Shown here: positions 23,315 to 50,082 of the stretch, piece by piece | How positions within the stretch are numbered: position 1 is the stretch's first letter | Layout of the letters: every line of letters starts with the position of its first letter | NCBI GenBank assembly: GCA_913061475.1 | Contig: CAJXUN010000032.1 | Location: 1 to 50,082, forward strand | DNA length: 50,082 nucleotides | Source: an uncultured Colwellia sp. | GTDB lineage: Bacteria; Pseudomonadota; Gammaproteobacteria; Enterobacterales; Alteromonadaceae | Direction: 5' to 3' | Made by a program: the position numbers and the translations under genes | The notes under the pieces: model-generated | Databases searched by the model: none | What the model was told of the DNA's origin: nothing | Seen by the model: only the letters and a program-made list of their open reading frames with translations

Positions 23315-23339
23315 TTATCATTGTTTTTTATTGGTATGT

Positions 23340-24966: not shown

Positions 24967-25574
24967 GAATTTTCCCTTTCAAGATTAGTTAAGCGAATAC
25001 GATAACCGCGAATGAAGTTTTCCAATTCATAGCCATCATCACGTTTTTCTATTTTGATGATATCTCGATTATTCTGCGTAATAATTCGCTGCCAAATAAT
25101 ACTATTTTCATGTAAAACAGGCGTTTGCTTCACATCAACATTATGACCTAACATTGCTGTTTTTAATATCTCTAACGGCCAATTACACAGCTGTATATCC
25201 GCAATAATAAAAGCAATATCAACACTTGGTAGCGGCACATACTGATTCATTTCAGTGGCTTTATCACTAAACCAAACGAAGTCAAATAATGGCAAACCTT
25301 GTGGTGAAACAGCGGCCATAGCAATTTCATCTCGGCGATATTCAACTTGCGCGATAAACTGATGTGTTTGCTCTTTTGAGGTAATTGTCACTAAATGACT
25401 ATCAACCGTTGCTATTTTATTTGCCGGTGGAGCGGTTAATATAAAACTTAACTCATCAGCTAAAAATACTGATTTATTGTCAGACGTTAATGCACAAGCA
25501 GTTAATAACCACACTAGCAGCACAAGTAATGCCTTGCTTATCAAGTGATAGCGTTTATTTACCCTGGTTGACAT
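24963..25574 (-). CDS. apeN: ApeN-like lipoprotein (DUF3261)
   Basis: A 203-residue lipoprotein with a signal peptide and lipobox LLTAC (about residues 23-27). The mature part is a DUF3261-like domain of aryl polyene clusters; its position between the FAD oxidoreductase and apeO is the usual one. It probably acts in the periplasm or outer membrane in carrying or placing the polyene lipid. The exact role is not established. It overlaps the upstream gene by 16 bases. Confidence 0.78.
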   Translation of the reverse strand: MSTRVNKRYHLISKALLVLLVWLLTACALTSDNKSVFLADELSFILTAPPANKIATVDSHLVTITSKEQTHQFIAQVEYRRDEIAMAAVSPQGLPLFDFVWFSDKATEMNQYVPLPSVDIAFIIADIQLCNWPLEILKTAMLGHNVDVKQTPVLHENSIIWQRIITQNNRDIIKIEKRDDGYELENFIRGYRIRLTNLERENS

Positions 25575-26824: not shown

Positions 26825-29118
26825 GAACGTCCCATTTCACTTAAATTTATGTTTTTGGCAGAAATAGGCGCTAAAATAAAAATACTGACAATGCCTATCA
26901 TCACAGTTAAACCAAAACTACTCACCGCAGGAGTAGCACTAAAAACCAGAATACCGAACACTGCTGCAGATGATAAAGCAGACAGACTAATAGCTAAAAA
27001 CGTTTTCACTTGTAGTCCATGCTCTTGATAAAAAATAACGTAATCAATAGCTAAAGCAATAATAAGCAACACAGCAAGTAAATTAAATATATTTAAATGG
27101 CTAGAGAATAACTGACTAAGCGTTAGGGCGAGTAATGCACTGCCTATGGTTGCAATAGCTGATAATGCTCCTGCTTTTAGACCATACTTAGCAAATAAAA
27201 TAACCACCACAGCAACAAGTGCACTCGCTAACAGCCACAAAATTTCTTGTCGATATTGGCCAAGTGCATCGCTTACATCACTCGCGGTATCATATAAAGA
27301 CACGTGCGGGTTTTCAGCTAACCACAATAAATTATCCGCTGACAATGGCACTTGAGAAAACTCTAGCCATGACGCATATTCCAGACCATTTTCCGTATCA
27401 TAGTAAGCAGTATAAGACTGGGCAATTTCGGCCAAAGGGCCTTGCAAGAAATTCTGAAATGTTAACGGTTTAAAGGCGTTTATTGGGTCGTTCAAACCAC
27501 TGAGCGCTAATACCGCTTGAAAATTTCCTTGTTGGTCAGCCTTTGCTAATAAAGCATAATGCTGTTGTTGACGTTTAATGGAAGGTAAAAGTTTATTGAT
27601 ACCTTTCACCCTAATGTCGGCCTGGCTAGCTAACACTTGGTCAATCACTTGTTCTTGAAATTCCAACATTTCCTGTGCTGTTTTTGCTCTAATAATCAAA
27701 CGTTGTGAGTTTTGATAACTGAGTGCTTTAGCAACATTAACTTCTTGATCAATAAGCCACTTGGGGCTGGAATTAAGCAAACGTACGTCATCGTTAAACT
27801 TAATAGGTGCCAATACCGTGAGTAATATGAGAGCCAAGGTGAGTAACGCAATAGCAGCCTTTTTATGATTAAAGACCTTACTAAATAACGTAATACCTTG
27901 CTGGCTAAAAGTGAGAGAAAAAGGCGAGCAGGTTATTTTGCTAAAGCCCTTTAACTGTGGCAATAAAAACAACACAGTAATTAATGCACCTAATAGGCCG
28001 AATATCATAAATACCGCGACTTGACTCAACAAAGATAACGGGGAAAAAACCAGAATAAAATAGCCAATAGCGGTGGTAATAAAGCCAAGTACTAAGGGTT
28101 TGGTTAGTGGATGTCCTTCATGCTCTTGCTGGTGTTTTCTTTGCCTATCAGCATACACCAAGGCATGAAAACAATAATCTATGACCACACCAATTAAGGT
28201 AATGGCAAAGACCAAGGTTAATAAATGTAAGCTTTGAAAAAATAACAATATGGCGATAAAGCCATAGGCACAAGCAATTGACAATACCAATAGCGCACTG
28301 AGCAGGGGCAACATGGAACGAAACGCGCTCCAAATTAGCAACAGCACGGCAACAAGAGATAAAACCCCAAAAGTGGATATTTCAGCTTTCGCTTGGCTAG
28401 TCGATTCAGCGGTATGAAAAAGTATACCCGAGTAAATTAATTCAACTTGTTCTGCAGCGCGAATGTCGTTAAACAACTGCTGTAATTTTGCCGAAATATC
28501 GACGCTAGTATTAAGATCTAAGCCATCAAGCGTTACTTGTAAGCGGCTGAGCAAGTAGCGTTGTCCTTGCACATTAACAAACGCCACACCTTGGTCAAAC
28601 TCAACGTCCGCTAAGTTAGATAGTGCTACTTGTAAATAGTCGGCTAAATTTAATCTCGGCGCTGTTGCTATGGTTTCGCTAACAAAAGGGTTTGCAACTT
28701 GTATAATTTGCTTTGTTGCTAGTTGCGCTAAAGCTTGGCTATTATCAAGATGTTCAAGATACGAAGACGTTAAGAAATTATGTCGAAAAGGACTATAAAA
28801 CTCAGCAATATCCGTTAAAGAGGGTTCCGTAAGCGGCGCGATACTAACGTTAGCAACATCATGCACTTTCACCGCTAAAGCATCATGAGCCTTCAGTGCA
28901 TTGTCTCCAGCAATTAGTACTATCAACTGCTGGCTTTTACGCTTAAATAGCGCATGTTCTGCGGCACTAAAATCTTGCTGTTGTGCTGAATGCGGCAATA
29001 TCGATAGCAAATTGCTTTCAATGCGCCACTGACCAAAAAACAGTAAGTAGCCTCCCAACAAAAATACTGCGAGTAATTGCAACCAATATAGCTTTTTCAA
29101 TTTATTGAAGTCGCGCAC
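26821..29118 (-). CDS. apeM: ApeM-like MMPL/RND-family exporter
   Basis: A 765-residue membrane protein with the RND/MMPL layout: a first TM helix near 12-30, a large periplasmic domain, a bundle of TM helices (about 235-390), a second TM helix near 415-440, a second periplasmic domain and a final bundle (about 635-750). The ITLIGVVIDYCFHALVYADR and LLIIALAIDYVIFYQEHG segments carry the conserved Asp in TM helices that relays protons. In aryl polyene clusters this predicted transporter moves the lipid-linked product to the outer membrane. It overlaps apeL (17 bases) and the FAD gene (4 bases). Confidence 0.88.
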   Translation of the reverse strand: MRDFNKLKKLYWLQLLAVFLLGGYLLFFGQWRIESNLLSILPHSAQQQDFSAAEHALFKRKSQQLIVLIAGDNALKAHDALAVKVHDVANVSIAPLTEPSLTDIAEFYSPFRHNFLTSSYLEHLDNSQALAQLATKQIIQVANPFVSETIATAPRLNLADYLQVALSNLADVEFDQGVAFVNVQGQRYLLSRLQVTLDGLDLNTSVDISAKLQQLFNDIRAAEQVELIYSGILFHTAESTSQAKAEISTFGVLSLVAVLLLIWSAFRSMLPLLSALLVLSIACAYGFIAILLFFQSLHLLTLVFAITLIGVVIDYCFHALVYADRQRKHQQEHEGHPLTKPLVLGFITTAIGYFILVFSPLSLLSQVAVFMIFGLLGALITVLFLLPQLKGFSKITCSPFSLTFSQQGITLFSKVFNHKKAAIALLTLALILLTVLAPIKFNDDVRLLNSSPKWLIDQEVNVAKALSYQNSQRLIIRAKTAQEMLEFQEQVIDQVLASQADIRVKGINKLLPSIKRQQQHYALLAKADQQGNFQAVLALSGLNDPINAFKPLTFQNFLQGPLAEIAQSYTAYYDTENGLEYASWLEFSQVPLSADNLLWLAENPHVSLYDTASDVSDALGQYRQEILWLLASALVAVVVILFAKYGLKAGALSAIATIGSALLALTLSQLFSSHLNIFNLLAVLLIIALAIDYVIFYQEHGLQVKTFLAISLSALSSAAVFGILVFSATPAVSSFGLTVMIGIVSIFILAPISAKNINLSEMGRS

Positions 29119-29740
29119 GCACAGCCTCTGGCAACATCGTCATCGGAGTTAGTTGTAAAGTAATCTCGGTACGATTACCACTATGCTCATGCAGAATAAT
29201 ATGATTAATATCGTTCAGGTTTTGTTGATTTTTTTCTGGAGTATCAATATGGCATAACTGCACATTATCGATAATTTTCGCTAATTGAGTCAATTTAGGC
29301 GTTAAACTCAAGCAATGGTCAATCGCGCTAGCGTTGATTGTAAAATTTTTGGCTAATTTTTCACTATCGCCTGACATGATGTCTAATAGCACCTGACTGA
29401 TAGCGCTAGCGCTTTTAATTTCTTGGCTATCACCGTTATCATTTTCAGTAAACAGTCCCGATTTTTTCAGTAGCAACGCTGAATATATCGGTTGCTCAGT
29501 TTGCCACAACAAACCAATGCTAACATCAAAGTAGAGTTCACCTTGCGACTTAATAGGGTGTTTTAACACCTTAAAATACTTGCGCTGAACAAAGCTACCC
29601 GACGCAATAGGTACGGCGCTTAAGGCAAGTATTTTTGACTGCTCATGCTGATGACTTTCAGCAAAAGCACCAGCGCTAAAGCATATAGCCACCATAAGTA
29701 GCATCACAGCAATAGCGTTAATACGCTCTAGGTGTATCAT
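29102..29740 (-). CDS. apeL: ApeL-like periplasmic carrier (LolA-type)
   Basis: About 212 residues from the chosen ATG at 29740, giving a signal peptide ending near AGAFAES; another in-frame start at 29752 or further is possible. The mature domain has the LolA-like pattern of a half-open beta-barrel (FVQRKYFKVLKHPIKSQGELYFD), typical of lipoprotein carriers. It is the ApeL position, and probably shuttles the polyene lipid through the periplasm between ApeM and the outer membrane. The start overlaps the end of apeK by 23 bases. Confidence 0.75.
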   Translation of the reverse strand: MIHLERINAIAVMLLMVAICFSAGAFAESHQHEQSKILALSAVPIASGSFVQRKYFKVLKHPIKSQGELYFDVSIGLLWQTEQPIYSALLLKKSGLFTENDNGDSQEIKSASAISQVLLDIMSGDSEKLAKNFTINASAIDHCLSLTPKLTQLAKIIDNVQLCHIDTPEKNQQNLNDINHIILHEHSGNRTEITLQLTPMTMLPEAVRARLQ

Positions 29741-30170
29741 GACTACTCGCATTAAAATTATTGATTTTATCAAGTAAAATGGCCGGTGAAACATACTGCA
29801 TTTCCTTACTCGACAAATCTACCGCCACTTGTACCGTATAACCTTTAGTCAGCTTCTTACCTGTTGCAGCACAACAAATAATGTAATTGATTTTCAATCT
29901 TGACTCATATTCAACTAATTCAGCCGTAATGATAATTTTTTGCGTAAATACCGCTGAACCAATATATTTAGTGCGCATATCAACAATCGGCCACATGTAG
30001 CCAGAAGCTTGCATATCAAGGTAATCGTAGGATATTTTACGCAATAGCTCACAACGAGCTACCTCAAAATAGCGGGCATAATTACCATGCCAAACCACCT
30101 GCATCGGGTCGCAATCATGAAAGGGTACATCAATGATAACCTGAGCCGATAAAAACACCGATTTACTCAT
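29718..30170 (-). CDS. apeK: ApeK-like acyl thioesterase (4HBT hotdog)
   Basis: A 150-residue hotdog thioesterase. The active-site segment DVPFHDCDPMQVVWHGNYARYFEVAR (HDCDP with the following VVWHGNY) is the 4-hydroxybenzoyl-CoA thioesterase signature, with the catalytic Asp in DCDP. The start is ATG at 30170, with GGAG just upstream; an in-frame start 10 codons earlier is less likely. In aryl polyene clusters this enzyme releases or edits acyl intermediates. It overlaps the ammonia-lyase end by 8 bases. Confidence 0.85.
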   Translation of the reverse strand: MSKSVFLSAQVIIDVPFHDCDPMQVVWHGNYARYFEVARCELLRKISYDYLDMQASGYMWPIVDMRTKYIGSAVFTQKIIITAELVEYESRLKINYIICCAATGKKLTKGYTVQVAVDLSSKEMQYVSPAILLDKINNFNASSHDTPRAY

Positions 30171-31710
30171 ATAAGCTCCAGCGTTGGGTTTGAATAGCAT
30201 CTACGGTAAAGCGCAATAGTTTATCGAGTGGTCGATCATCTAATAAAGGTTCGAAAAACTGGCAAATATCGTCGTACATTGCCATAACAGGTGCGGGTAA
30301 AGTGTCATGCTCAAGTTCATTATTAGCAATACGAATACGAACTCCCTGAACAGCTGCTAACAATGTACTAGCAAGCACTTGTTCGGTTAATTGTAGTACT
30401 CGCATCGCATCACGAGCAGCTATAGTTCCCATACTCACTTTATCTTGATTGTGACATTCAGTTGAACGCGAAAAAACACTGGCCGGCATGGTATGTTTCA
30501 AGGCTTCAGCAGTATAGGCTGAAGCGCCAATTTGTACGGCTTTGAAACCATGATTGATGTAACGACGCTCACCTTCACTCATCGATAAATTCGACGGTAA
30601 GCCATTGTTATAACGGGTATCAACCAAAGATGCTATTTGTCGATCGGCTAAATCAGCTAAATTAGCCACCGCGGGCTTCATAGAATCCATTACCATAGCA
30701 ATATGACCACCATAAAAGTGGCCACCATGTAAAACATGTTCACCGGGGCCATCAATAATAGGATTATCATTAGCTGAATTCAGTTCGTTCTCAATCATTT
30801 GACGAAACCAAGGTAAGGAGTCTTGTAAAACACCAATAACATGAGGCGCACAACGAATAGAGTACCTATCTTGCAAGCGATCAGCATTACGCGGATGATC
30901 AACATGATTCAGGTCGTTACGGATCCAAGTGGCTATTTGTTGTTGACCAGCATGAGGTTTAACCGAGAATAAAATCTCATCAAAGTGATGACTATTTCCT
31001 TTCAAGGCCAAACTTGCTAGCGCGGTAATTCGTGCCGATAGCTTAGCTAAATACTGAGAGCGATCAAAAGCTAAACAAGCAATAGCGGTCATTACTGCCG
31101 TGCCATTCATAATCGCTAAGCCTTCTTTAGGTCTAAGTACGATAGGCTTTAAACCTAAGCGATTCATTACTTCAAGGCTATTGTGTATTTCACCTTGATA
31201 ATAAACGTCACGTTCACCTACCAAAGCACCAGCAACATAAGATAAAGGGGTTAAATCGCCACTAGCGCCGACGGAACCCTCTTGTGGAATAACCGGCACA
31301 ATGTCGTGTTGCAAAAAGGCTTTTAAAAGCTCGAGTAACGGCCAGCTAACACCCGAATAACCTTGAGATAAAGAGGTTAAACGCGTCGCTAAAATGGCGC
31401 GCCCTTCAAAAGAGCTAAACATTTCACCCAGTCCACAGCCGTGAAATCGTGTCAGGTGTAAAGGTAATTCAGGCACTAAACTCAAAGGAACATTAACTGT
31501 AACAGAATCACCATAGCCGGTTGTTACGCCATATATAACACCGTCTTCTTGTAACAAGGTATCAAGAAATTTAATCGCAGAATCTATTTTATGGGTAAAA
31601 TCAACGGACTGACTTAACTCAGCATTAAGCTCTTTTTTTGCAATACCGACAATATTTTCTATTTTAACTCGTGCTTCACCGAATTTAATGGCGTTTTGAC
31701 TATTAGGCAC
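30163..31710 (-). CDS. Aromatic amino acid ammonia-lyase (HAL/PAL/TAL family)
   Basis: A 515-residue MIO-enzyme. The cofactor-forming Ala-Ser-Gly triad is at 149-151 in GSVGASGDLTPLSYV, the catalytic Tyr60 lies in YGVTTGYGDS, and the NSANDNPI segment is present. The residue at the selectivity site is His90 (TRFHGCG), as in histidine and tyrosine ammonia-lyases rather than phenylalanine enzymes. In an aryl polyene operon the expected role is supplying the aromatic starter acid (for example coumarate from tyrosine). Histidine ammonia-lyase for histidine degradation is unlikely, because no hut genes are near. The substrate is inferred. Confidence 0.87.
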   Translation of the reverse strand: MPNSQNAIKFGEARVKIENIVGIAKKELNAELSQSVDFTHKIDSAIKFLDTLLQEDGVIYGVTTGYGDSVTVNVPLSLVPELPLHLTRFHGCGLGEMFSSFEGRAILATRLTSLSQGYSGVSWPLLELLKAFLQHDIVPVIPQEGSVGASGDLTPLSYVAGALVGERDVYYQGEIHNSLEVMNRLGLKPIVLRPKEGLAIMNGTAVMTAIACLAFDRSQYLAKLSARITALASLALKGNSHHFDEILFSVKPHAGQQQIATWIRNDLNHVDHPRNADRLQDRYSIRCAPHVIGVLQDSLPWFRQMIENELNSANDNPIIDGPGEHVLHGGHFYGGHIAMVMDSMKPAVANLADLADRQIASLVDTRYNNGLPSNLSMSEGERRYINHGFKAVQIGASAYTAEALKHTMPASVFSRSTECHNQDKVSMGTIAARDAMRVLQLTEQVLASTLLAAVQGVRIRIANNELEHDTLPAPVMAMYDDICQFFEPLLDDRPLDKLLRFTVDAIQTQRWSLYE

Positions 31711-31724
31711 TGATGTTACTCCAA

Positions 31725-32693
31725 TTATTCATTTGTTGAGTTAGGACTTTTTTCTTCACGTATAACATTTTGATCATTTTGCCAAAAGTCGAAAAAGTTA
31801 AACCACTGATATGGATACGCTAAACAATAATGCTCTAAGCGTTGCGCATATTTATTAACCACCGCAGTAAGTGATGCTTGTCGATTTTTACGAGAAAACT
31901 TTAAACTATCGGCAACATGCTCAAAAATAATCCGATAGTTGTTGTTTTCTTTTAAACAGAATAAAAAATATACCGGACAATCTAAAATAGCTGCCAAAAT
32001 AAAAGCACCTTGTGAAAAAGCCGCTGGCTCACCTAAAAATGGGCTGTAAATAACTCGTCCTTGTGAGGTTACACTGGTGCGATCGCCGGCTATCACTAAA
32101 ATTTCACCGTTATCAATGCGTTCTTTAATTAAAATCGCCAAGTCTGCACCAACATGAGTTGCTTGAATCAAGTCAACATTCGAATCGGCATTAATTTTTT
32201 TCATCACTTTGTTGAATTCAACCGCATGGTGCGTAAATACTAATACATTGATACGGGTTTGATAACGACCATGGCCCAGTGCTCGACATACTTCTAAGTT
32301 ACCAAGGTGAGAGCCAATAAAAACCGCACCTTGTTGTTTTTCTTGTAATTCTATAATTGGATGACCTTCACTATAAATTACACGGTCAGGCGTAATACGC
32401 CCCATCCAAGCATCTATTTTATCGAAAGCACTTTGAGCAAAACTATAAAAATGCACAATGCCGATGCGGTGGGTAAAGGTTTGAGATGACTTTTTAACGG
32501 CAAATATCCGTTGCCAATATTCCTTAGAGGCTTGCTTACTTGCGCCGCCCGTAAAATATAAATAAACCACCACCGGGTAGAGAAAAAACGACAATATTTT
32601 GCGACCAAATAATCGGTAAACAAATAACAATATTTGTATGCCGAGATACGTGCCACGCTCTTGGATTTTAGACCAATGTTTAGTGTCTGCCAT
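31725..32693 (-). CDS. LpxL/HtrB-like lipid acyltransferase of the aryl polyene cluster
   Basis: A 322-residue membrane-associated acyltransferase. An N-terminal hydrophobic helix (about 20-50) leads into the family domain. The HxxxxE-type active site is GSHLGNLEVCR, and the later AGDRTSVTSQGRVIYSPFLGEPAAFSQGA block is typical of lauroyl/myristoyl (LpxL-like) acyltransferases. In this cluster it probably attaches the polyene to a lipid anchor. In some aryl polyene systems a glycosyltransferase and such an acyltransferase are one fused protein, as I recall; here they are two neighbours 4 bases apart. Confidence 0.82.
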   Translation of the reverse strand: MADTKHWSKIQERGTYLGIQILLFVYRLFGRKILSFFLYPVVVYLYFTGGASKQASKEYWQRIFAVKKSSQTFTHRIGIVHFYSFAQSAFDKIDAWMGRITPDRVIYSEGHPIIELQEKQQGAVFIGSHLGNLEVCRALGHGRYQTRINVLVFTHHAVEFNKVMKKINADSNVDLIQATHVGADLAILIKERIDNGEILVIAGDRTSVTSQGRVIYSPFLGEPAAFSQGAFILAAILDCPVYFLFCLKENNNYRIIFEHVADSLKFSRKNRQASLTAVVNKYAQRLEHYCLAYPYQWFNFFDFWQNDQNVIREEKSPNSTNE

Positions 32694-32697
32694 TGCG

Positions 32698-33429
32698 TTA
32701 ATTCAACTTTCTTAGCAGTAAACTAGGTATGCGTATTAACATGCCAAAAAATAACCGTGTATGCATCCAAGAAATTAGTAAATTATCTTCTAACGCTCTA
32801 AAATGTGACACACCATGCTCAGGGTAATCCACTGCCGTATCTATAAATCGAAGTTCAATATTGCGCCAAAAAAGCCTCACCATAACTTCAATATCAAAAT
32901 CCATGCGCTTACCAAGCTTTTGCTGCTGTATCAATTCCACACTAGCCGCTAAGGGGTAAACACGATAACCACACATGGTATCTTTAATTTTAAATGATAA
33001 GGTTTCAATCCAGACCCAAAAGTGAGTGATATTACGCGCGTAATATCGATGTTTAGGGATCGAGTCATCGTAAATAGGTTTGCCACTGATCAGTGCTTGG
33101 GGATGATTTTTTGATTCTGTAAGCAATTTTTCAACATCATTTAAATCATGTTGTCCATCAGCATCAACTTGTAAGGCATGGCTATAACCTCGTGCAAATG
33201 CCGCAGATAAAGCTGTTTGTACGGCACCACCTTTGCCTTGATTAATTTGATGTTCGATCACACTTAAACTGGCGTGTTTAGCCGCTAAATCACGAAAAAT
33301 CTGTGTCGCCTGTTCATGGCTAGCATCGTTAACCATAATGATCGGCAAATCAAACTGCGTCAACGTCGCGATTAATTCATCTAATAATATCGTATGATTA
33401 AAGTTAGGAATAACAATGCAATAACTCAC
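32698..33429 (-). CDS. apeJ: Family 2 glycosyltransferase of the aryl polyene cluster
   Basis: A 243-residue GT-A fold glycosyltransferase. The start YCIVIPNFNHTILLDELI and the metal-binding ADGQHDLNDV motif (about residues 90-99) are characteristic of GT2 enzymes, and there is a polyprenyl-phosphate-like TMCGYRVYPL segment. In aryl polyene clusters this enzyme adds a sugar, linking the polyene to its membrane anchor. It overlaps apeI by 4 bases. The symbol follows gene order and might also be used for a fused GT-acyltransferase. Confidence 0.82.
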   Translation of the reverse strand: MSYCIVIPNFNHTILLDELIATLTQFDLPIIMVNDASHEQATQIFRDLAAKHASLSVIEHQINQGKGGAVQTALSAAFARGYSHALQVDADGQHDLNDVEKLLTESKNHPQALISGKPIYDDSIPKHRYYARNITHFWVWIETLSFKIKDTMCGYRVYPLAASVELIQQQKLGKRMDFDIEVMVRLFWRNIELRFIDTAVDYPEHGVSHFRALEDNLLISWMHTRLFFGMLIRIPSLLLRKLN

Positions 33430-33827
33430 GCAGTTTCCTCAAAAACAATTCTGCCTGAGGCGTGTTGACCTTTATCAGAAGCATAGGAAAATAGTACTTT
33501 ATTGTTGGTTTTTCTGCTTAGGGTTAAATTGAGCTTTTGTCCTGGAATAATAACCACTTGAAACTTCATCACTTCAATATTTTGCACTTCTAATTCGGTG
33601 AGAGAAAAGTATTTTTTCGCATACTCAACAGCCCAGTGTAACTGCACAACACCGGCTAAGATAGGCGCACCAGGGAAATGTCCGTTAAAGTAATCTAAAT
33701 CCTTCGGGATCAATAACTGTAATGCAATTTGGTTTTCATCAATATTATCTGCTAATACTTCAGGCCAAATTTTTACTAAATCGTTATGGGTGCGCACAAC
33801 ATTAGTCAAACAACTTCTCCAAATCAC
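33426..33827 (-). CDS. apeI: Aryl polyene 3-hydroxyacyl dehydratase ApeI (hotdog)
   Basis: A short hotdog protein of about 133 residues. GHFPGAPILAGVVQLHWAVEYA is the FabA/FabZ-type signature with the active His in HFPG. It forms the dehydratase with ApeP in this pathway. The start is uncertain: GTG at 33827 is the longest reading, but TTG at 33809 and GTG at 33797 are also possible, and GGAG in apeH fits the later ones. The gene overlaps apeH and the glycosyltransferase. Confidence 0.83.
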   Translation of the reverse strand: MIWRSCLTNVVRTHNDLVKIWPEVLADNIDENQIALQLLIPKDLDYFNGHFPGAPILAGVVQLHWAVEYAKKYFSLTELEVQNIEVMKFQVVIIPGQKLNLTLSRKTNNKVLFSYASDKGQHASGRIVFEETA

Positions 33828-35172
33828 TTAATACCAGTTTCCCTTGCGAATTATACGGGAATTCAGTCAAATATCGCCATTTTTTTGGTAAACAAATGCG
33901 TTCAATATCACTCAGGAGATGTCGCTTTAAAGCATTGCTAAAAGCGAGCTTGCCATGCTCAAGCAAACTTTGTTGACCATTGGTTGTTAATACCAACACT
34001 GCCGTTAATATTTTTCGTGCACTGTGAGTGCGATTAGTCATCACAATGATGCGGGCTTCGGCGACCCAGTCATGCAAAACTAACTGTCGTTCAATTTGAT
34101 TAAGGTTAACTCTTTTTTCTTCAATTTTAACCGTTCTGTCGATGCGGCCTTTTAACAGAAAGCGTCTGGCATCAAGCAGCTCGACGTTATCGTCAGTTAA
34201 ATAAGGCTGTTCTGTAACATAGGGCGAGAATATCACTAAGCGTTGACTATCAGCCGATGTTTGTAGCTTGATGTTAGCAAACGCCTGCCAAGGTTCATCA
34301 ATTGAGCTTTGACCACGACGCCATGCGATACCGCCAGTTTCAGTGCTACCATAAACTTCTGTCGGTGCAATATTCATTTGCTGTAACAAAGCTTGACTGG
34401 TCGCTAAAGACAACAAGCCGCCGGAACTAAAAATACCAATAAAATTTTGCGAGTAAGGCACTAGAACATTATCAAGTGCCAACCTTTGCAAGTGTGCCGG
34501 GCTTGAAACCAGTACGCTATTGACTGTTTCTGATCGTTTAACCTCCGCTAATTCATCCAATGTGCGGCCAATATGTTCAGGATATTCAAAGGTTTGATTA
34601 ACAATCGTTTTACCTAACAGTAATGGGACTAATACTTTAAATAACAAGCCATAAATATGCTGATGGGATACCGTGCTCACAATGATATTACTTGCCTGAT
34701 ACAGCGCAGAGAATTCACTTTTTAAGGCCGCGATTTCTAAACTTAATTGCTGACAATTTTTATCAATCGCTTTCGCTTGTCCGGTTGAACCTGAAGTATA
34801 AAAGGTAATTTCGCCAACAAATAACGCAAAAAATTGCTCTCGTGTTAAACCATGATCGGCAATCACTTTACGCTCATCGCTCGACTGGGTTATTTGCGAC
34901 TTGTCTGTTAATGCAATGCTACCTGCGGTTGCATCACATTGTGACGCCAGCTGATGTAGAGTACCCGATTGCGCATTTGGCGGCAGTAAAACATGCCTGT
35001 TTTCAAAAATAAGCGCAAATAGCCAAACTGAAAATTGATAACTGTCGGCATTAAAAAGCAAAACTCTTTTAGCGTCTGTTTGCTTAACAGCTACCTGGGC
35101 TTGTGTAACATCTTGGCAAAATTGTTTAAAAGTAATGTGATGTCCATCACGATAAAAGCAAATATCACTCAT
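33802..35172 (-). CDS. apeH: Aryl acid AMP-ligase ApeH
   Basis: A 456-residue adenylation-domain enzyme of the ANL superfamily. The phosphate-binding motif TFYTSGSTGQAKAI is at about 124-137, EVYGSTETGGIAWRRG is the A5 block and GRIDRTVKIEEKRVNL is the A8 segment. In aryl polyene systems it activates an aryl carboxylic acid (4-hydroxybenzoic type or cinnamic type) and loads it on an ACP (ApeE or ApeF). It overlaps apeG by 8 bases. Confidence 0.88.
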   Translation of the reverse strand: MSDICFYRDGHHITFKQFCQDVTQAQVAVKQTDAKRVLLFNADSYQFSVWLFALIFENRHVLLPPNAQSGTLHQLASQCDATAGSIALTDKSQITQSSDERKVIADHGLTREQFFALFVGEITFYTSGSTGQAKAIDKNCQQLSLEIAALKSEFSALYQASNIIVSTVSHQHIYGLLFKVLVPLLLGKTIVNQTFEYPEHIGRTLDELAEVKRSETVNSVLVSSPAHLQRLALDNVLVPYSQNFIGIFSSGGLLSLATSQALLQQMNIAPTEVYGSTETGGIAWRRGQSSIDEPWQAFANIKLQTSADSQRLVIFSPYVTEQPYLTDDNVELLDARRFLLKGRIDRTVKIEEKRVNLNQIERQLVLHDWVAEARIIVMTNRTHSARKILTAVLVLTTNGQQSLLEHGKLAFSNALKRHLLSDIERICLPKKWRYLTEFPYNSQGKLVLSDLEKLFD

Positions 35173-35776
35173 TACGATTAGAACTCTCAGGTGTTTGAGG
35201 TCTATCAGTGCTAAGCAAGAGCTGCTGTTTTTTCACTTTTAAACGCACTAAATATTCAACTAACATCAAAAGCCCCATCATGACATAGGAGATGAAACCG
35301 TTATAAATCATCCAGCTATCTAACGACATAAACAGCGCTGTATATAAAGATACTAAGCCATTAATAATAAAAAACAAACACCACACTAAGGTGACTTTAG
35401 CGGTATATTTTATTGCCTGAGGCGGAAGGTCTTTTTCACTTAAACGCGCAAAAGTTTCAATCACCGTAGGGGGTTTAAAATATGAATAGGAAAAAACCAT
35501 CAGCATCGCGAAGTTTATCGCTAGCGGATAAAGCTTAAAACCAATAGTACTATCAGTAAATGCACTGGCCATGATAGCCACTACCCCTAATATTGAAGCA
35601 GGTAAAAGCCAAGGAAATTTTTTTAACTTGGTTCGCACCAAAAAAATTCGCATCAAGACAAAAGTGATTAAAATAATGGCTAAATACCCAGGTTTGAGAT
35701 TATTTAAGCCAATATAAACAGCAAAGGGATACATCAATAGTATCCCCGTTGTTAGCGCCGTTATAAAAAATTTCAC
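35165..35776 (-). CDS. apeG: ApeG-like membrane protein (COG4648)
   Basis: A 203-residue protein with about six transmembrane helices (roughly 4-24, 30-45, 55-72, 82-100, 125-145 and 155-175). The PLAINFAMLMVFSYSYFKPPTVIETFARL segment and its position between the ACPs and the ligase correspond to the conserved COG4648 membrane gene of aryl polyene clusters. Its function is unknown. It overlaps apeF by one base. Confidence 0.78.
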   Translation of the reverse strand: MKFFITALTTGILLMYPFAVYIGLNNLKPGYLAIILITFVLMRIFLVRTKLKKFPWLLPASILGVVAIMASAFTDSTIGFKLYPLAINFAMLMVFSYSYFKPPTVIETFARLSEKDLPPQAIKYTAKVTLVWCLFFIINGLVSLYTALFMSLDSWMIYNGFISYVMMGLLMLVEYLVRLKVKKQQLLLSTDRPQTPESSNRNE

Positions 35777-45234: not shown

Positions 45235-46614
45235 TTATTCTACATTTATTGATTCAATTTTTACCGTGGGCTGTCCTAGGCCTACGGGAATAACTTGAGA
45301 TAGCTTATTACAACATCCTAATCCATTATCAAATTGTAAATTATTTGAAATCATAGATACATTATTTATTACTTCGCTACCTATACCAGTAATTATATTA
45401 TCTTTAATTGGCTCAGATATTTTGCCTTTTCTAATCCTATATCCTTCGAGTATTTTCAGAGTAAACTTACCACTAAGTGTATCAACCCTCCCGTTTCCAA
45501 AGGACTTGATTATCACCCCATCTTCTATCGAATTAATAATATCTGATCTTTCATCAATACCTGGTTTTATATAGGTATTTGACATTCTCGGCAGAGCATT
45601 ATGTCGAAAAGACATTCGTCTACCTGAACCATTTGAAATGCCTCCCAATGCTCTAGCACTACTTTTATCTAGCAGATAATTTTTTAGCTCCCCATCCTGT
45701 ATAAGTATGTTTTCTTTAGTTAAAGTACCTTCATCATCGTAAGTCTGACTTCCTCCAATATTTTGGATTGATGCATCATCAACTAATGTTACTTTTTCAT
45801 TTGCAATGCGCTGACCTATCTTATCCGAGTAAATAGACTTCTTTTGAATTATATTGTCGACTTCAAGCCCGTGCCCTATCGCTTCATGAAACAATGTTGC
45901 AGGCAGACCAGAATCAAAAACTACGGGTAGTGAACGCTGTATTAGACGTTTTCCATATACTGAGTTGTGAGCCTGTCTTATAGCATTTGTAATTGAGGAA
46001 TTAATTTTCAAGAATATTTGGTTTTCAGTGAGTCCGGATATTTCTCTACGACCGAATCCTGAAAAGCCAGTTACAATTTTCCCTTCAATTTTTGCTATGA
46101 CTGTAACTGTATACTGGAATTTACTTCTATCATCAGAAATAAAACCGTCATCCGTATTCACAATCATAATATCTGTATCGTCTGAAACTAAATTTGAGTT
46201 CAACTCCAAAATTTCAGGAAAGTTTTTTCTACTTTCTTTTTCTGAAAAAAGTATATGCTCAACGATGGCATCTATATTTATAAAAGGCTTAATAAATGAA
46301 TCACTTGTAAATACTGGCGATTTATCAGATTTTTCTAAAAAATGATTCTCAGGGGTTACTATATTTAGAATAGATTTATAGGAAAGGTCACCAGTGCATG
46401 AGAATGTAGAGTAATCGTTTTTGCATGTCGAAAAATTAATACCGTTATCTACATTTGAGGCTTTATACTTAATGCTCGAATTGTTAAAAACATAAATTGT
46501 AGTATTTTTATATTGTAGAAAAAACTCACTATAATCGTTTTTTTTAAGTGTAGGTGAAGTTAATAATGAGTGAAAAAAATCTCTATTAATTAAGCCAAGA
46601 AAGTTACTATTCAT
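45235..46614 (-). CDS. TldD-like zinc metalloprotease subunit (accessory copy)
   Basis: A 459-residue protein of the TldD/PmbA family, close to the usual length. The zinc site HEAIGH is complete (His243, Glu244, His248) in LFHEAIGHGLEVD. The GRRMSFRHNALPRMSNTYIKPG segment and the ending GCCNKLSQVIPVGLGQPTVKIES match TldD. The family's C-terminal Cys zinc ligand is present in GCCNK. TldD works with TldE to degrade unstructured peptides, and in microcin B17 maturation it removes the leader. It overlaps the tldE-like gene by 8 bases, with AAGGAG inside that gene as its Shine-Dalgarno. Base composition is much more A+T-rich than the surroundings. It is the last gene of the peptide operon. Confidence 0.88.
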   Translation of the reverse strand: MNSNFLGLINRDFFHSLLTSPTLKKNDYSEFFLQYKNTTIYVFNNSSIKYKASNVDNGINFSTCKNDYSTFSCTGDLSYKSILNIVTPENHFLEKSDKSPVFTSDSFIKPFINIDAIVEHILFSEKESRKNFPEILELNSNLVSDDTDIMIVNTDDGFISDDRSKFQYTVTVIAKIEGKIVTGFSGFGRREISGLTENQIFLKINSSITNAIRQAHNSVYGKRLIQRSLPVVFDSGLPATLFHEAIGHGLEVDNIIQKKSIYSDKIGQRIANEKVTLVDDASIQNIGGSQTYDDEGTLTKENILIQDGELKNYLLDKSSARALGGISNGSGRRMSFRHNALPRMSNTYIKPGIDERSDIINSIEDGVIIKSFGNGRVDTLSGKFTLKILEGYRIRKGKISEPIKDNIITGIGSEVINNVSMISNNLQFDNGLGCCNKLSQVIPVGLGQPTVKIESINVE

Positions 46615-47923
46615 TTATTTTCAACTCCTTAATAAAAGCGGCAGATGTACGTACTTTATATTTCTGACAATGAGGGGAAGAAAGAAACATTAGTTTTTTA
46701 AATAAATTTATTATATTAATTGTAAAACTTCTTTTTTCTAGCTTGCTAACCCTTACTCCAGCCTTAATATAGAAGCCATTAAAAACTTGATGCAATAATC
46801 CTGTCATTTGGTTGTACCCATTACCGGCTAGTTCCTCAATTACAATATATTCACCAATATCTGATAAATAGCTTTCTGTAATTGTATCTTCGGAACGAAT
46901 AACCCAGTTGCTTGCTCCATTTGCATTCCCTGTGTTTGGTTTATTCAATTTGTTTGACGATTCTCTATCCAATAGCAGTGACTCTAATTTCCCCGAGTTT
47001 ACTATATTTTTTTTTATGGTATTTTGACCTTGTTTATCAAAAGGCATATTGTAGAAACCATTTGAAATTAATGGGATTTCTTGAATGGATACAAAATCAG
47101 AAAAAATTTGCTTGTTAAAGTGCGAGTACAAATATGAGTGTTCTGCCAAGCTATTTGATAAATCTATTGATGAAGAAAGATAGCCCAATAATTGGTTTAG
47201 AGCTTTAGGAGCGATCATCACTCCTAGCCCACTAGGTAATAATTCAGCATCACTTAAACAGTTTTGCTTCATTGATTCAGTTATTTGTTCAATTACATTT
47301 TCATGTAAAGAGCAGTAAATATGATTTTTGGACTTATAACTTTCTAGAGTTCTTTTTAAGCCACTCTCAGTTTTCATAAGAGCCTCAAAACCAAAATTAC
47401 ACTCATTCGTCTTATATGTTTTATTACTACCAAGAGAGTTAATATAGGAATAAGATCTACTTTCAACGCTATATTTGCAGGTAGTATTTTCGAATGACAT
47501 TTTGATACTATCAATAAATCCAGTTATTGTTGGAGCCAATAGTTGATAATAGTCCTGATTGACATTAATTGTAGATTCATCAATATAATAGCTATCCACT
47601 GCAGACTTTTCTATATCAAAATCTGATAAGTATTTAGAACTATTACAATTATCCATTGCTTGCTGTATTGCATTCTTTATATGCAATACAGAGTTTGCAT
47701 TTGTCGTAGAAAATCCTAATTTGGAATTTTTATGAGCAGTAATCTTAATTTTAAAAAAGCTTTTTTCCGTAAAAAATTCTTGTTTACTATCATCCCAAGA
47801 GTTTAATTTATAACTTGTTTCTTCTACGTATGCTTCGATATAGAAATCAGGAATATTGCAAATATAAAGACTAACCTCATTCAATAAATCAATCTTTACA
47901 TTTTGGTTCAATGATTGGCCCAT
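46607..47923 (-). CDS. TldE/PmbA-like partner subunit (accessory copy)
   Basis: A 438-residue protein of the TldD/PmbA family, lacking the HExxxH zinc motif, as expected of the TldE partner. The segments SLGSNKTYKTNECNFGFEALM, PSGLGVMIAPKALNQLLGYLSSS and NTGNANGASNWVIRSEDTITESYLSD show the family pattern of PmbA. It should form a heterodimer with the TldD-like product. It begins 2 bases after the upstream cupin-like gene and overlaps the tldD-like gene by 8 bases. The protein is diverged from what I would expect of a housekeeping PmbA, with a shortened C-terminus. Confidence 0.8.
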   Translation of the reverse strand: MGQSLNQNVKIDLLNEVSLYICNIPDFYIEAYVEETSYKLNSWDDSKQEFFTEKSFFKIKITAHKNSKLGFSTTNANSVLHIKNAIQQAMDNCNSSKYLSDFDIEKSAVDSYYIDESTINVNQDYYQLLAPTITGFIDSIKMSFENTTCKYSVESRSYSYINSLGSNKTYKTNECNFGFEALMKTESGLKRTLESYKSKNHIYCSLHENVIEQITESMKQNCLSDAELLPSGLGVMIAPKALNQLLGYLSSSIDLSNSLAEHSYLYSHFNKQIFSDFVSIQEIPLISNGFYNMPFDKQGQNTIKKNIVNSGKLESLLLDRESSNKLNKPNTGNANGASNWVIRSEDTITESYLSDIGEYIVIEELAGNGYNQMTGLLHQVFNGFYIKAGVRVSKLEKRSFTINIINLFKKLMFLSSPHCQKYKVRTSAAFIKELKINE

Positions 47924-47925
47924 TA

Positions 47926-48828
47926 TTAATGGCCTAAAATATATTCGTAGTTTTTACGAACAGCTTCGCTTTTTGTTTTTTCGATAAATTTAAGCTGCTC
48001 CATAGAGGCACCTAAATTATCAGCGGCTCGAATATAAGATAGTGTCAAAGATTCATTATTAGGCTTATTTTCATCTATTTGAAGTTTGAGTTTTTCCAAT
48101 ATCAAATCGAGTGAATTTTCATCTCCAATCTCTCCAATCATATCGACAATTTTAACTTTACCAATATCAGTATCGCTGATTATATTGCTAATTCTTGCTC
48201 TACGAGAGTTTTCAATTTCAAATAAATACTGTGTACTTTGCTCTTGAGAAGGAACCATTAAATTAAAACTAATGCTCAATTCTTCAGGCGCTATTTGAGA
48301 ATGTATATCTACATTTTTTTCCATAAACAATATTCTCCCCTCTTCCAGTCTACAATGTCCGTTATATTCGATATCAACTCTCTCATTAACATAACCGACA
48401 ACATTTTTACGACTATATTTATGTAACTTTGTCGTATACCCAGAGCCTAACAAACCACCAGTCAGAATATTAAAGCTGTGATCGTGTGGAAGTTCTTCAC
48501 CGAAAATTCTTTTTTCTGCTTTTAGACGGTAATTGTCACCAGTAGGGATCCATGCATTAGTTCTAAGGAAGAACTTATCACTATGGTAAAGAACATCTGT
48601 TTGTGAGGTATAAAAATCACTAAGCTTATGTGAGTTACCCCCAAAGGTTTTTAATGATTTGCATAGACGATCAATAAACCATTGCTTATTATTCAGCAGT
48701 TTCTTCATTTCCAATGACGATTCAATAATCGACTCCTTACAATTGAAGTTAATATTGGACTCCAAATAATCTATATATTCTTCTAATGTTGTTTTTTCTT
48801 TTTCGAGTAAATCAATAACTACAGCCAT
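47926..48828 (-). CDS. Cupin-like protein with HEAT-like C-terminus, putative peptide-modifying factor
   Basis: A 300-residue cytosolic protein. Residues 1-75 are helical. Residues about 85-200 look like a cupin: LPHDHSFNILTGGLLGSGYTT with His115 and His117 (the HDH metal motif), His136, and a second conserved block KNVDIHSQIAPEELSISFNLM with His176. The last 90 residues form helices with a HEAT-like GDENSLDLILEKL. The metal ligands suggest an iron-dependent oxygenase or isomerase, but no enzyme activity is shown. AGGA precedes the ATG at 48828. It is 13 bases after the first cupin/HEAT gene. I do not recognise a named family. Confidence 0.6.
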   Translation of the reverse strand: MAVVIDLLEKEKTTLEEYIDYLESNINFNCKESIIESSLEMKKLLNNKQWFIDRLCKSLKTFGGNSHKLSDFYTSQTDVLYHSDKFFLRTNAWIPTGDNYRLKAEKRIFGEELPHDHSFNILTGGLLGSGYTTKLHKYSRKNVVGYVNERVDIEYNGHCRLEEGRILFMEKNVDIHSQIAPEELSISFNLMVPSQEQSTQYLFEIENSRRARISNIISDTDIGKVKIVDMIGEIGDENSLDLILEKLKLQIDENKPNNESLTLSYIRAADNLGASMEQLKFIEKTKSEAVRKNYEYILGH

Positions 48829-48841
48829 ATTTTATTTCCTT

Positions 48842-49762
48842 TTAAGCAGCTTTATTTGTGTTAATCAAGTTTGTACATATTTGTGCTATTTCGATATGTG
48901 GATCTTTCATTCCTTGATGTATAAGCTCTTTCGCAAGCGAGCTATCAAGCGCATTAGCTGTTTTTATAGCTTCCCAACGAACTGTATGTGCGGGATGTTC
49001 AAATGCTTTTTTAATCGCTTCTTTAATCTGTTCACTGCTTTTATTCAAATGTTTCAGAAATTTTAAATTCATTTTAATCCGAGTCATTTTTTTATCTGTA
49101 TCTGCAAGTTGAACAGCATCTAATTTGTTATTGAAAAGCACTTGATACGGAGACATTTCCTTTTTTCTAAAAATGGCGTAAAAGGTATATTTTTCACTAG
49201 ACAATTTAACTACATTTTCATCTGCACCAACCTTTATACAATCTCCTTTTTTCAACAGTCCTTCACCTACACTCTTTAACTTAAGGTTTGATAAAAGTGA
49301 CTGCTTAGGAGATGAAGATAAGTCTTCGAAAGTGAATTTTTTATAATGCATTTCTCCGTCAATGATGTGTACAAACTGTGCATTTGGAGATGACGATATA
49401 TTTGATTCTTCTCGTTTTAATACTTCAATAAAGTCATACGAATTGTTCTTTCTGTTATTATTATGAGTTTTCTTTATTCCTATACTTATATGGCAATAAT
49501 CATCTTCGTGTAAAATAAGAGTATTTTTTCTGATTTGTCCATCAAGATCTGAGCCTAGGTTGTTAATTTTTGAATCTCCCTCCACAGTGGCGCTGTAACT
49601 TAAAATGTCGAATAAGATTGGTTCTAGAGATAAGTTAGTGAACGCTTTATCCATTAATCGTTTTATTTCTAAGTCGCTGTTGCTTTCCAAGGCTAATCTT
49701 GCAAGAGTGTCAGTATTTATATGTTGCGATATATGTTTCGATAGCGTAGATATTTTTTTCAT
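48842..49762 (-). CDS. HEAT-repeat protein with cupin-like middle, first large gene of the peptide operon
   Basis: A 306-residue protein from ATG at 49762, which follows AGGGA at normal spacing; the longer reading up to 49861 overlaps the precursor gene and is unlikely. Residues 80-210 look like a beta-rich, cupin-like domain (ILHEDDYCHISIGIKK with candidate metal ligands His85 and His91). Residues 245-303 are HEAT-type helices (HPAHTVRWEAIKTANALDSS, then a second similar unit). The layout is like the next gene's product (helical N-terminus, beta-rich middle, HEAT-like end), so the two may be diverged paralogues and partners. HEAT repeats may bind the peptide. Function unknown. Confidence 0.6.
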   Translation of the reverse strand: MKKISTLSKHISQHINTDTLARLALESNSDLEIKRLMDKAFTNLSLEPILFDILSYSATVEGDSKINNLGSDLDGQIRKNTLILHEDDYCHISIGIKKTHNNNRKNNSYDFIEVLKREESNISSSPNAQFVHIIDGEMHYKKFTFEDLSSSPKQSLLSNLKLKSVGEGLLKKGDCIKVGADENVVKLSSEKYTFYAIFRKKEMSPYQVLFNNKLDAVQLADTDKKMTRIKMNLKFLKHLNKSSEQIKEAIKKAFEHPAHTVRWEAIKTANALDSSLAKELIHQGMKDPHIEIAQICTNLINTNKAA

Positions 49763-49777
49763 AAGTATTCCCTGAAG

Positions 49778-49818
49778 AGGTAAAACAGAAACTGTAATTG
49801 TTATTTTCTGTTTTACCT
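49778..49818 (-). promoter_or_regulatory. Perfect 14-bp stem-loop between the peptide gene and the first enzyme gene
   Basis: AGGTAAAACAGAAA (49778-49791) pairs exactly with TTTCTGTTTTACCT (49805-49818) around a 13-base loop. It starts 14 bases after the precursor stop and ends 15 bases before the next start codon. It has no U-tract, so it probably protects the precursor mRNA or tunes the ratio of peptide to enzymes, like intercistronic hairpins in bacteriocin operons. Confidence 0.7.
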
Positions 49819-49832
49819 GTGTCTTATTTCTA

Positions 49833-49955
49833 TTATTGAATTGCCATTGCGATTGAACCAACTATCAAAATTGCATACGCCCATTCAGAATCTCCTGATT
49901 CAGGCATTGCAGATTCGGTTTCTAAGTTGATGCTATCTAAATTAATGTTTTCCAT
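49833..49955 (-). CDS. Putative 40-residue precursor peptide (RiPP-like), copy A
   Basis: A 40-residue ORF that begins MENINLDSIN, with an acidic, unstructured N-terminal half containing Met and Pro (LETESAMPESGDSE) and a hydrophobic C-terminal half, WAYAILIVGSIAMAIQ. It has no Cys. AGGA lies just before the ATG. The acidic leader, hydrophobic core and location directly upstream of TldD/TldE and putative modifying genes fit a precursor of a modified peptide. A second copy stands 160 bp upstream (higher coordinates) with the same encoded sequence over the visible 29 residues. The product could be a bacteriocin or signal; no activity can be claimed. Confidence 0.75.
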   Translation of the reverse strand: MENINLDSINLETESAMPESGDSEWAYAILIVGSIAMAIQ

Positions 49956-49992
49956 TTTTCTTTCCTATTTATAGAGAGTGAGTAATACGTGT

Positions 49993-50082
49993 TTATTGAA
50001 TTGCCATTGCGATTGAACCAACAATCAAAATTGCATATGCCCATTCAGAATCTCCTGATTCAGGCATTGCAGATTCAGTTTC
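49993..50082 (-). CDS. Putative precursor peptide, copy B (5' end beyond the window)
   Basis: The last 29 codons and the stop of a second peptide gene are in the window. They encode exactly the same residues as copy A, from ETESAMPESG to the terminal Gln. The DNA differs at three third-codon positions, all synonymous (Thr ACC/ACT, Ala GCG/GCA, Ile ATA/ATT). The N-terminus and any further copies lie past the right edge. Confidence 0.75.
   Translation of the reverse strand, partial: ETESAMPESGDSEWAYAILIVGSIAMAIQ

What the first reader, a model, noticed from the sequence alone, without database searches (positions are those of the whole stretch)
45235..50082. Candidate undescribed peptide (RiPP-like) system: tandem 40-residue precursors, two cupin/HEAT proteins and an accessory TldD/TldE protease
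Seen in the sequence: one tight minus-strand operon (gaps of 13 and 2 bases, overlap of 8) joins duplicated small acidic-hydrophobic peptide genes to two large proteins with cupin-like and HEAT-like parts and to TldE and TldD homologues. Established knowledge: TldD/TldE are leader peptidases for microcin B17-type RiPPs. Inference: the peptides are the substrates, the cupin-like proteins modify or recognise them, and TldD/TldE mature them. I know of no described RiPP class with this combination. The region is much more A+T-rich than its surroundings, suggesting horizontal transfer.
Basis: partly seen in the sequence, partly recalled or inferred. Interest (0 to 1): 0.92.

Follow-up and report, generated by a model that had tools for sequence, protein, structure and literature searches.

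The report
Unnamed peptide operon with paired cupins
A bacterium carries an operon of small hydrophobic peptides, a pair of unnamed cupin/HEAT proteins (one with an intact metal site) and its own peptidase; the peptide-plus-pair core recurs across many proteobacteria and looks like an undescribed family of modified peptides, although no product or chemistry has been shown.

Summary
Window 45235-50082 is one minus-strand operon: peptide copy 2 (cut by the contig end), peptide copy 1 (40 aa), protein A, protein B, TldE, TldD. The conserved core is peptide-A-B, not TldD/E. A lies directly upstream of B in 72 of 73 named loci from alpha-, beta- and gamma-proteobacteria; a leader-like peptide gene was scored upstream of A in 56 of the 73 (partly circular). 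Tandem copies differ mostly synonymously. B models as helices/cupin/HEAT; its nearest solved folds are thiol dioxygenases, with three His invariant in 63 of 63 sequences. A is a paralogue without conserved cupin His. Pfam and NCBIfam name neither in the proteins tested. Some relatives add Yip1-MacA-MacB, a PF14373 protein and a LytTR pair. TldD/E is a local add-on: beside A-B only here and (TldD alone) in Dyella monticola, 2 of 85 sources. It is not the housekeeping pair. Most likely this is a RiPP-like system with an A-B maturase, B being a non-haem metal enzyme, and TldD/E trimming the leader. Modification, product and bioactivity are inferred. Against it: the window peptide is not recovered by the peptide profile when left out.

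The parts
49993..50082 (-). 3' part of peptide gene copy 2 (codons 12-40 and stop); its 5' part lies beyond the contig end
   Evidence: 29 of 29 visible residues identical to copy 1; contig length 50082; no other place in the genome carries the rest
49833..49955 (-). Peptide gene copy 1, 40 aa, acidic N-terminal half and hydrophobic C-terminal half; candidate precursor
   Evidence: 3 synonymous, 0 non-synonymous codon differences between the copies over 28 codons. Assigned by place, tandem copies and make-up; the peptide profile built without it does not find it
48842..49762 (-). Protein A: helical N-terminus, cupin-type barrel without conserved metal ligands, C-terminal HEAT-like repeats (ORF open to 49861; start at 49762 is my choice)
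   Evidence: model pLDDT 82.5; Foldseek; profile comparison with B E 3.7e-8; no conserved His in the barrel
47926..48828 (-). Protein B: helical N-terminus, cupin-type barrel with three invariant His (H115, H117, H176), C-terminal HEAT-like repeats; proposed maturase
   Evidence: Model pLDDT 88.1; Foldseek to thiol dioxygenases; residues identical in 63 of 63 sequences
46607..47923 (-). TldE/PmbA-like subunit, extra copy
   Evidence: PF19289 E 8.6e-32; 26% identity over 206 residues to the genome's PmbA on C10
45235..46614 (-). TldD-like metallopeptidase subunit with HExxxH and the aligned C-terminal Cys, extra copy
   Evidence: PF19289 E 4.1e-59; 30% identity to the genome's TldD on C23 and motif alignment; ligands as described in PMC5810440 (passages)

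Best explanation
This is a RiPP-like peptide maturation operon. A short precursor (N-terminal recognition half, hydrophobic C-terminal half) is bound by a heterodimer of two cupin/HEAT paralogues. A has lost the metal site and serves as binding or structural partner. B, a three-histidine cupin of thiol-dioxygenase fold, carries out a metal- and probably oxygen-dependent modification of the precursor. In this genome a dedicated TldD/TldE heterodimer then degrades the leader from the N terminus until the modified part stops it. In several relatives the hydrophobic product is handled by a Yip1-MacA-MacB or ABC-2 set and controlled by a LytTR two-component pair, which suggests an antimicrobial or signalling role. 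Shown: genes, operon layout, conservation of peptide-A-B, selection on the peptide sequence, predicted fold, invariant metal-ligand set, extra status of TldD/E. Inferred: heterodimer, modification and its chemistry, leader trimming, export, bioactivity.
For: A directly upstream of B in 72 of 73 named loci, A present in 83 of 85 sources and in 8 of 8 further loci, three of which repeat earlier ones. Peptide profile without the window peptide: 85 hits (E<=0.01) upstream of A, 2 elsewhere, among 13,350 small ORFs; 59 of 83 A-bearing sources covered. Synonymous over non-synonymous codon differences in tandem copies, summed over pairs: Rheinheimera 26/0, Ferrimonas 10/0 (3 of 4 copies used), S. hanedai 8/2 (3 of 6 used), S. 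nanhaiensis 99/26, window 3/0. Sphingomonad peptides: conserved N-terminal part, variable linker, conserved hydrophobic part (alignment, 35 peptides). B: Foldseek rows 1-37 are thiol-dioxygenase entries, best E 5.4e-7; R89, W93, H115, H117, D174, H176, Q178 identical in 63 of 63. TldD keeps HExxxH and Cys, and TldD/E is an established leader peptidase with little sequence preference (PMC10885120 passages).
Against: No chemistry or product was observed. The window peptide is not found by the profile when left out, so its link to the family rests on place and make-up. Dropping the sphingomonad seeds finds sphingomonad peptides only weakly (E 0.02-0.6). 45 of 80 unique peptides have no Cys in the last 45 residues and no residue common to all cores was evident to me, so a shared reaction is not obvious. 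No exporter is seen in the window; most Sphingomonadales loci had no exporter hit nearby, so export is not general. 24 of 83 A-bearing sources had no scored peptide. TldD/E is missing beside A-B in 83 of 85 sources.
Confidence: 0.55

Rival explanations
1. Unmodified hydrophobic bacteriocin or pheromone: the peptides act as translated or after trimming, and A-B is a cytosolic chaperone or self-protection complex that keeps the peptide soluble and inactive until export.
For: Yip1-MacA-MacB neighbours in some relatives, Yip1 weakly matching the YknW family; YknWXYZ is an efflux pump protecting Bacillus from the SDP toxin (abstract start of PMC4887032 in the listing). Several loci hold two peptide types side by side. 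A has no metal site.
Against: Complete conservation of a three-His site and nearby polar residues in B is more than a chaperone needs; sphingomonad loci keep peptide, A and B mostly without an exporter hit nearby.
Confidence: 0.2
2. A-B is a sensor: B uses its metal site to sense oxygen or redox state, like cysteine-dioxygenase-type sensors, and A-B together with the peptide regulates a membrane or cell process; antimicrobial versions are secondary.
For: Sphingomonadales keep peptide-A-B at the same chromosomal surroundings in L047, L063 and L075 with no exporter query hit, and B is present in 56 of 196 genomes of that order (one is a weak end match). Fold neighbours of B include plant cysteine oxidase and ADO, which sense oxygen (role recalled).
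Against: Four to six tandem near-identical peptide genes are hard to explain for a regulator; exporter and LytTR genes in gamma loci.
Confidence: 0.15
3. TldD/E in this operon does not mature the peptide; it is a passenger or a general peptidase that removes misfolded or excess peptide, and leader removal (if any) is done by the housekeeping pair.
For: TldD/E is absent beside A-B in 83 of 85 sources, and all 15 of the 15 A-B genomes that I tested (of 73) have TldD/E-family genes.
Against: In the window the four large genes are tightly packed (gaps 13, 2, overlap 8) and share low G+C. A TldD-like gene lies independently in a MacB-type operon next to A-B in Dyella monticola.
Confidence: 0.3

Closest known systems
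Microcin B17-type RiPPs matured by TldD/TldE (also klebsazolicin and a Yersinia microcin C; PMC10885120 passages)
   Same: Short precursor genes and a TldD/E pair with intact HExxxH and Cys in TldD
   Different: There TldD/E is a chromosomal gene pair outside the cluster; here it is an extra pair inside the operon. No YcaO-type enzyme was recognised among the operon's five proteins; A and B take the maturase's place
Biphenomycin and ammosamide clusters, which carry a TldD-type gene inside the cluster (PMC12707348 passages; PMC10885120 passages)
   Same: A peptidase of the TldD family encoded with the precursor; non-haem iron chemistry
   Different: Biphenomycin uses MNIO, B12-radical SAM, JmjC and other enzymes and lacks TldE; ammosamide uses PEARL enzymes (listing); no such enzyme was recognised here
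Thiol dioxygenases (cysteine, 3-mercaptopropionate, cysteamine dioxygenase; plant cysteine oxidase)
   Same: Barrel fold of B and a three-His set with an HDH motif (motif of cysteine dioxygenase recalled)
   Different: About 14-17% identity; extra N-terminal helices and HEAT repeats; the Tyr157, Cys93 and His155 of mammalian cysteine dioxygenase (recalled) appear replaced; most peptides lack Cys
SDP toxin with the YknWXYZ pump of Bacillus; leaderless and circular bacteriocins whose papers mention Yip1 (listing, passages not read)
   Same: Short hydrophobic peptide; Yip1-MacA-MacB set in some relatives
   Different: A-B has no counterpart there as far as I recall; no exporter is visible in the window; the genome's only Yip1 gene is elsewhere without MacAB queries nearby

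Membership tests
RiPP system | Ribosomal precursor gene next to its maturation enzymes | tested here: met
   Peptide-A-B layout in 56 of 73 named loci by scored hit and visible candidates in others; the role of A-B as enzymes is inferred
RiPP system | Leader/core organisation of the precursor | tested here: inconclusive
   Shared N-terminal pattern and hydrophobic C-terminus; the window peptide is not recovered when left out
RiPP system | Post-translational modification of the core | not testable with these tools
   Needs mass spectrometry
RiPP system | A recognised RiPP maturase family | tested here: not met
   A and B match no Pfam or NCBIfam model above cut-off in the window, L079 or L047
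TldD/TldE metallopeptidase | HExxxH and remote Cys in TldD, paired with TldE | tested here: met
   ligands from PMC5810440 passages
TldD/TldE metallopeptidase as RiPP leader peptidase | Cleavage of the modified precursor | not testable with these tools
   Adjacency only; shared with one other locus, TldD alone
Thiol dioxygenase | Cupin barrel with three-His metal site | tested here: met
   Predicted fold and Foldseek, invariant H115, H117, H176; metal geometry not measured
Thiol dioxygenase | Second-sphere residues of cysteine dioxygenase (Tyr157, Cys93, His155) | tested here: inconclusive
   By eye the matching stretch of B reads S-x-S-x-N rather than the recalled cysteine dioxygenase residues; residue identities recalled, no structural superposition available
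Thiol dioxygenase | Thiol substrate | tested here: inconclusive
   45 of 80 unique peptides have no Cys in the last 45 residues; if the peptide is the substrate, the reaction is not generally on a thiol
SDP/YknWXYZ-type bacteriocin system | Yip1-MacA-MacB pump encoded with the peptide | tested here: inconclusive
   All four parts hit in 10 of 85 sources, one of these (L070) with its MacA hit far away; not in the window, whose contig ends in the peptide genes

The most novel reading that the evidence does not exclude
A new class of ribosomal peptides defined by a heterodimeric maturase (A-B) in which a thiol-dioxygenase-fold enzyme fused to HEAT repeats oxidises or otherwise modifies aliphatic residues of a hydrophobic core, spread over alpha-, beta- and gamma-proteobacteria; the exported versions are membrane-active, often two-peptide antimicrobials, and the window's version has taken on its own TldD/E leader peptidase.
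Probability: 0.4. Interest if true: 0.88.

Novelty: new variant of a known kind. Interest (0 to 1): 0.72.

Why it matters
If right, it adds a three-His cupin paired with an inactive paralogue to the peptide maturases; the paper searches made here (open-licence papers only) listed nothing that describes such a pair. It would give a role to a widespread unnamed protein pair (B in 56 of 196 Sphingomonadales genomes; 24 of 395 genomes of the window's family) and offers a simple test of the chemistry: one peptide gene plus two enzyme genes. The in-operon TldD/E could be a natural tool for leader removal.

Tried and rejected
Rejected: TldD/E as the defining component (2 of 85 sources; 0 of 8). Rejected: TldD/E as the housekeeping pair. 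Rejected: thiol oxidation of the core as the general reaction (45 of 80 unique peptides without Cys in the last 45 residues). Rejected as exporter of this operon: the only Yip1 gene found in the genome, on C33, with no exporter query hit in 13 kb around it.

Led nowhere: a close-relative scan with window A (49 stretches, no relative); viral contigs (5 stretches, no relative); the cysteine dioxygenase family in 60 relatives (0 of 60, so no sequence for direct comparison); PDB sequence search with the B profile (three hits, E 0.071, 0.9 and 0.9); PADLOC (one weak hit, E 0.0036, taken as chance); a search for a contig carrying the missing part of peptide copy 2 (none). Paper searches. I saw passages of three papers; of all others only listings with the start of the abstract. 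My own gene caller is poor in high-GC loci; neighbourhood statements there rest on profile and tblastn hits. Many loci are cut by contig ends, so absence of neighbours is a lower bound.

Rows dropped: 11 of 73 named B proteins were left out of alignment A4, and A5 holds 34 of 72 named A proteins, some with starts chosen by script. In one search, 3 of 4 main Ferrimonas copies and 3 of 6 S. hanedai copies were compared, and pair counts are not independent.
Full report
What is there. The window is the whole of contig C32 of a 4.28 Mb, 88-contig genome. At its right end, minus strand, lie in reading order: peptide copy 2 (cut by the contig end), peptide copy 1, protein A, protein B, TldE, TldD. 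The two peptide copies differ in 3 of 28 compared codons, all synonymously. G+C over 45-50 kb is 0.30-0.32 in 2-kb windows, below the rest of the window. Of 17 genomes of the genus only this one has B. Low G+C and patchy presence fit acquisition from elsewhere; I did not test this with a tree.

TldD/E. Both subunits are clear by Pfam. TldD keeps HExxxH and the C-terminal Cys that the E. coli structure paper names as metal ligands (alignment; passages of PMC5810440). The genome also has a TldD on C23, a PmbA on C10 and a third pair on C20 whose TldD begins with a twin-arginine-like signal; the neighbours of the first two match, from memory, the usual gamma-proteobacterial places. The window TldD is 30% identical to the C23 copy, and the window TldE 26% over 206 residues to the C10 copy. 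So the window pair is an extra, divergent pair.

The conserved core. A search with window B found 10 of 295 family genomes, own included, and one plasmid record, of Alteromonas stellipolaris. A pattern-based scan of the collection of 84,980 species genomes returned 73 named loci: mostly Sphingomonadales, also Aquisalinus, Lysobacter, Stenotrophomonas, Dyella, Tahibacter, Nevskia, Alteromonas, Thalassotalea, Rheinheimera, Ferrimonas, Shewanella, Roseateles and a Janthinobacterium bin. Of 85 sources (window, L009, L021-L103) all have B and 83 have A; in the 73 named loci A sits directly upstream of B in 72, L094 being the exception. Some sources are the same place twice (L021/L058, L024/L076). 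Frequency of B, own genome included: 1 of 17 in the genus, 24 of 395 in the family with the larger profile, a few of them fragments or weak end matches, 6 of 394 in the order, 2 of 369 in the class; in a Sphingomonadales order sample 56 of 196, one a weak end match.

The peptides. Upstream of A lies a gene of about 37-60 aa in most loci, often in tandem: four near-identical copies plus a variant in Rheinheimera and in Ferrimonas, six in Shewanella hanedai, five in S. nanhaiensis. A profile from 20 seeds shows a shared leader-like pattern (roughly LPxL, about four residues, G, two residues, G, S/T) followed by a hydrophobic stretch. Built without the window peptide, it gives 85 hits at E<=0.01 upstream of A and 2 elsewhere (one 1.3 kb upstream of A in L102, one on the opposite strand beside A in L090) among 13,350 small ORFs; 59 of 83 A-bearing sources are covered, 56 of them named loci. 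The seeds were chosen at such places, so this count is partly circular. As a check, leaving out the two gamma tandem-type seeds still finds gamma peptides (E 3.1e-5 to 0.015), while leaving out the four sphingomonad seeds finds sphingomonad peptides only weakly (E 0.02 to 0.6). The window peptide itself is not found when left out. Of the 24 sources without a scored hit, candidates are visible in L022, L023 and L025-L029, L052, L088, L090, L093 and L102, and L080, L096, L097 and L099, besides the window's own; L038, L055 and L101 are cut by contig ends at A. I saw none in L062, L067, L069 and L103. Synonymous changes outnumber others in all five tandem sets examined, so the amino-acid sequence is what is kept. 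Several loci hold two peptide types side by side (L009, L031, L032, L037), reminiscent of two-peptide bacteriocins.

A and B. B models well (63 sequences, pLDDT 88.1), A fairly (35 sequences, pLDDT 82.5). Both have N-terminal helices, a beta barrel and C-terminal helical repeats; their profiles align over the C-terminal half (149 columns, E 3.7e-8). For B the first 37 Foldseek rows are thiol-dioxygenase entries, two of them titled only YubC (best E 5.4e-7, TM-score by target 0.54-0.68, by query about 0.4, identity 14-17%). For A the first rows are cysteine, thiol and ergothioneine dioxygenases (best E 4.8e-6, TM-score by target about 0.4-0.56). In B, R89, W93, H115, H117, G128, G130, Y131, D174, H176, Q178, S185, N189 and Q200 are identical in 63 of 63 sequences; A has no conserved His in its barrel. 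One relative without A and without a recognised peptide (G270, L030) has lost the HDH motif, as expected for a decayed copy. Neither family reached a Pfam or NCBIfam cut-off in the proteins tested (HEAT_2 hits below cut-off only).

Neighbours. With E<=1e-6, 10 of 85 sources show Yip1, MacA and both MacB parts, one of these (L070) with its MacA hit far away; L031 and L079 supplied the queries. Others have an ABC-2-type ATPase and permease after B. In Rheinheimera, Ferrimonas and two Shewanella a 70-71 aa protein follows B (PF14373 in the Rheinheimera one), then Yip1-MacA-MacB-MacB, a histidine kinase and a LytTR regulator. The Yip1 protein scores below cut-off with the YknW family; YknWXYZ protects Bacillus against the SDP peptide toxin (abstract start of PMC4887032). 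Most Sphingomonadales loci showed none of the exporter queries. Beside A-B, TldD/E-type genes were found only in the window and, TldD alone, in Dyella monticola. All 15 A-B genomes that I tested, of 73, carry TldD/E-family genes, so housekeeping TldD/E could serve elsewhere.

Reading. The simplest account is a RiPP-like system with an A-B maturase, a hydrophobic product and, here, a private leader peptidase. The chemistry is open. The fold suggests a non-haem iron, oxygen-using enzyme, yet residues that define cysteine dioxygenase (recalled) look changed, and more than half of the distinct peptides have no Cys in the last 45 residues. I call it a new variant of a known kind because the kind (precursor plus maturase plus peptidase) is known; if B proves to modify the peptide, the maturase class would be new as far as the searches made here can tell.

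Noticed in passing
window 21342-35734: A run of minus-strand genes that by eye looks like an aryl-polyene-type cluster (ketosynthases, ketoreductase, dehydratases, acyltransferase, AMP ligase, glycosyltransferase); not tested with profiles (translations).
   Followed up: no
L047, L063, L075 and other Sphingomonadales loci: Peptide-A-B sits in the same chromosomal surroundings (a diaminopimelate decarboxylase-like gene upstream; acpS, pdxJ-like genes downstream, by eye) with no exporter query hit nearby, which suggests a vertically kept, perhaps intracellular role.
   Followed up: partly
L025 9465-13212 and L026 9636-13214: A-B pair beside a peptide with a double-glycine-like leader, plus three tandem MKLKLNKKKL-type small ORFs and a large gene that by eye is NRPS-like; no NCBIfam match to the three L025 peptides tested.
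   Followed up: no
L027 11310-11426, L028 8716-8838, L029 8858-8977, L162 8649-8771: A strongly conserved peptide type (LGNFDV...LDPVFVIPIIII) upstream of short A-B forms, next to an RND-type efflux gene (by eye) in each.
   Followed up: no
L030 9512-10222: B relative without A in which the HDH motif reads RDY; probably a decayed or inactive copy.
   Followed up: no
G000:C20:20707-23768 (L110 8207-11268): A third TldD/E-type pair, the TldD with a twin-arginine-like N-terminus, followed by MoxR/DUF58-like genes by eye.
   Followed up: no
G1024:C19:105108-108881 (genome of L037, Stenotrophomonas maltophilia PC315): Three TldD/E-family ORFs in a row, away from the TldD/E pair on C60.
   Followed up: no
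L163 7073-10208: In a distant gamma-proteobacterium A-B is preceded by a JmjC/cupin_8-like ORF (by eye) and a small peptide ORF on the other strand.
   Followed up: no
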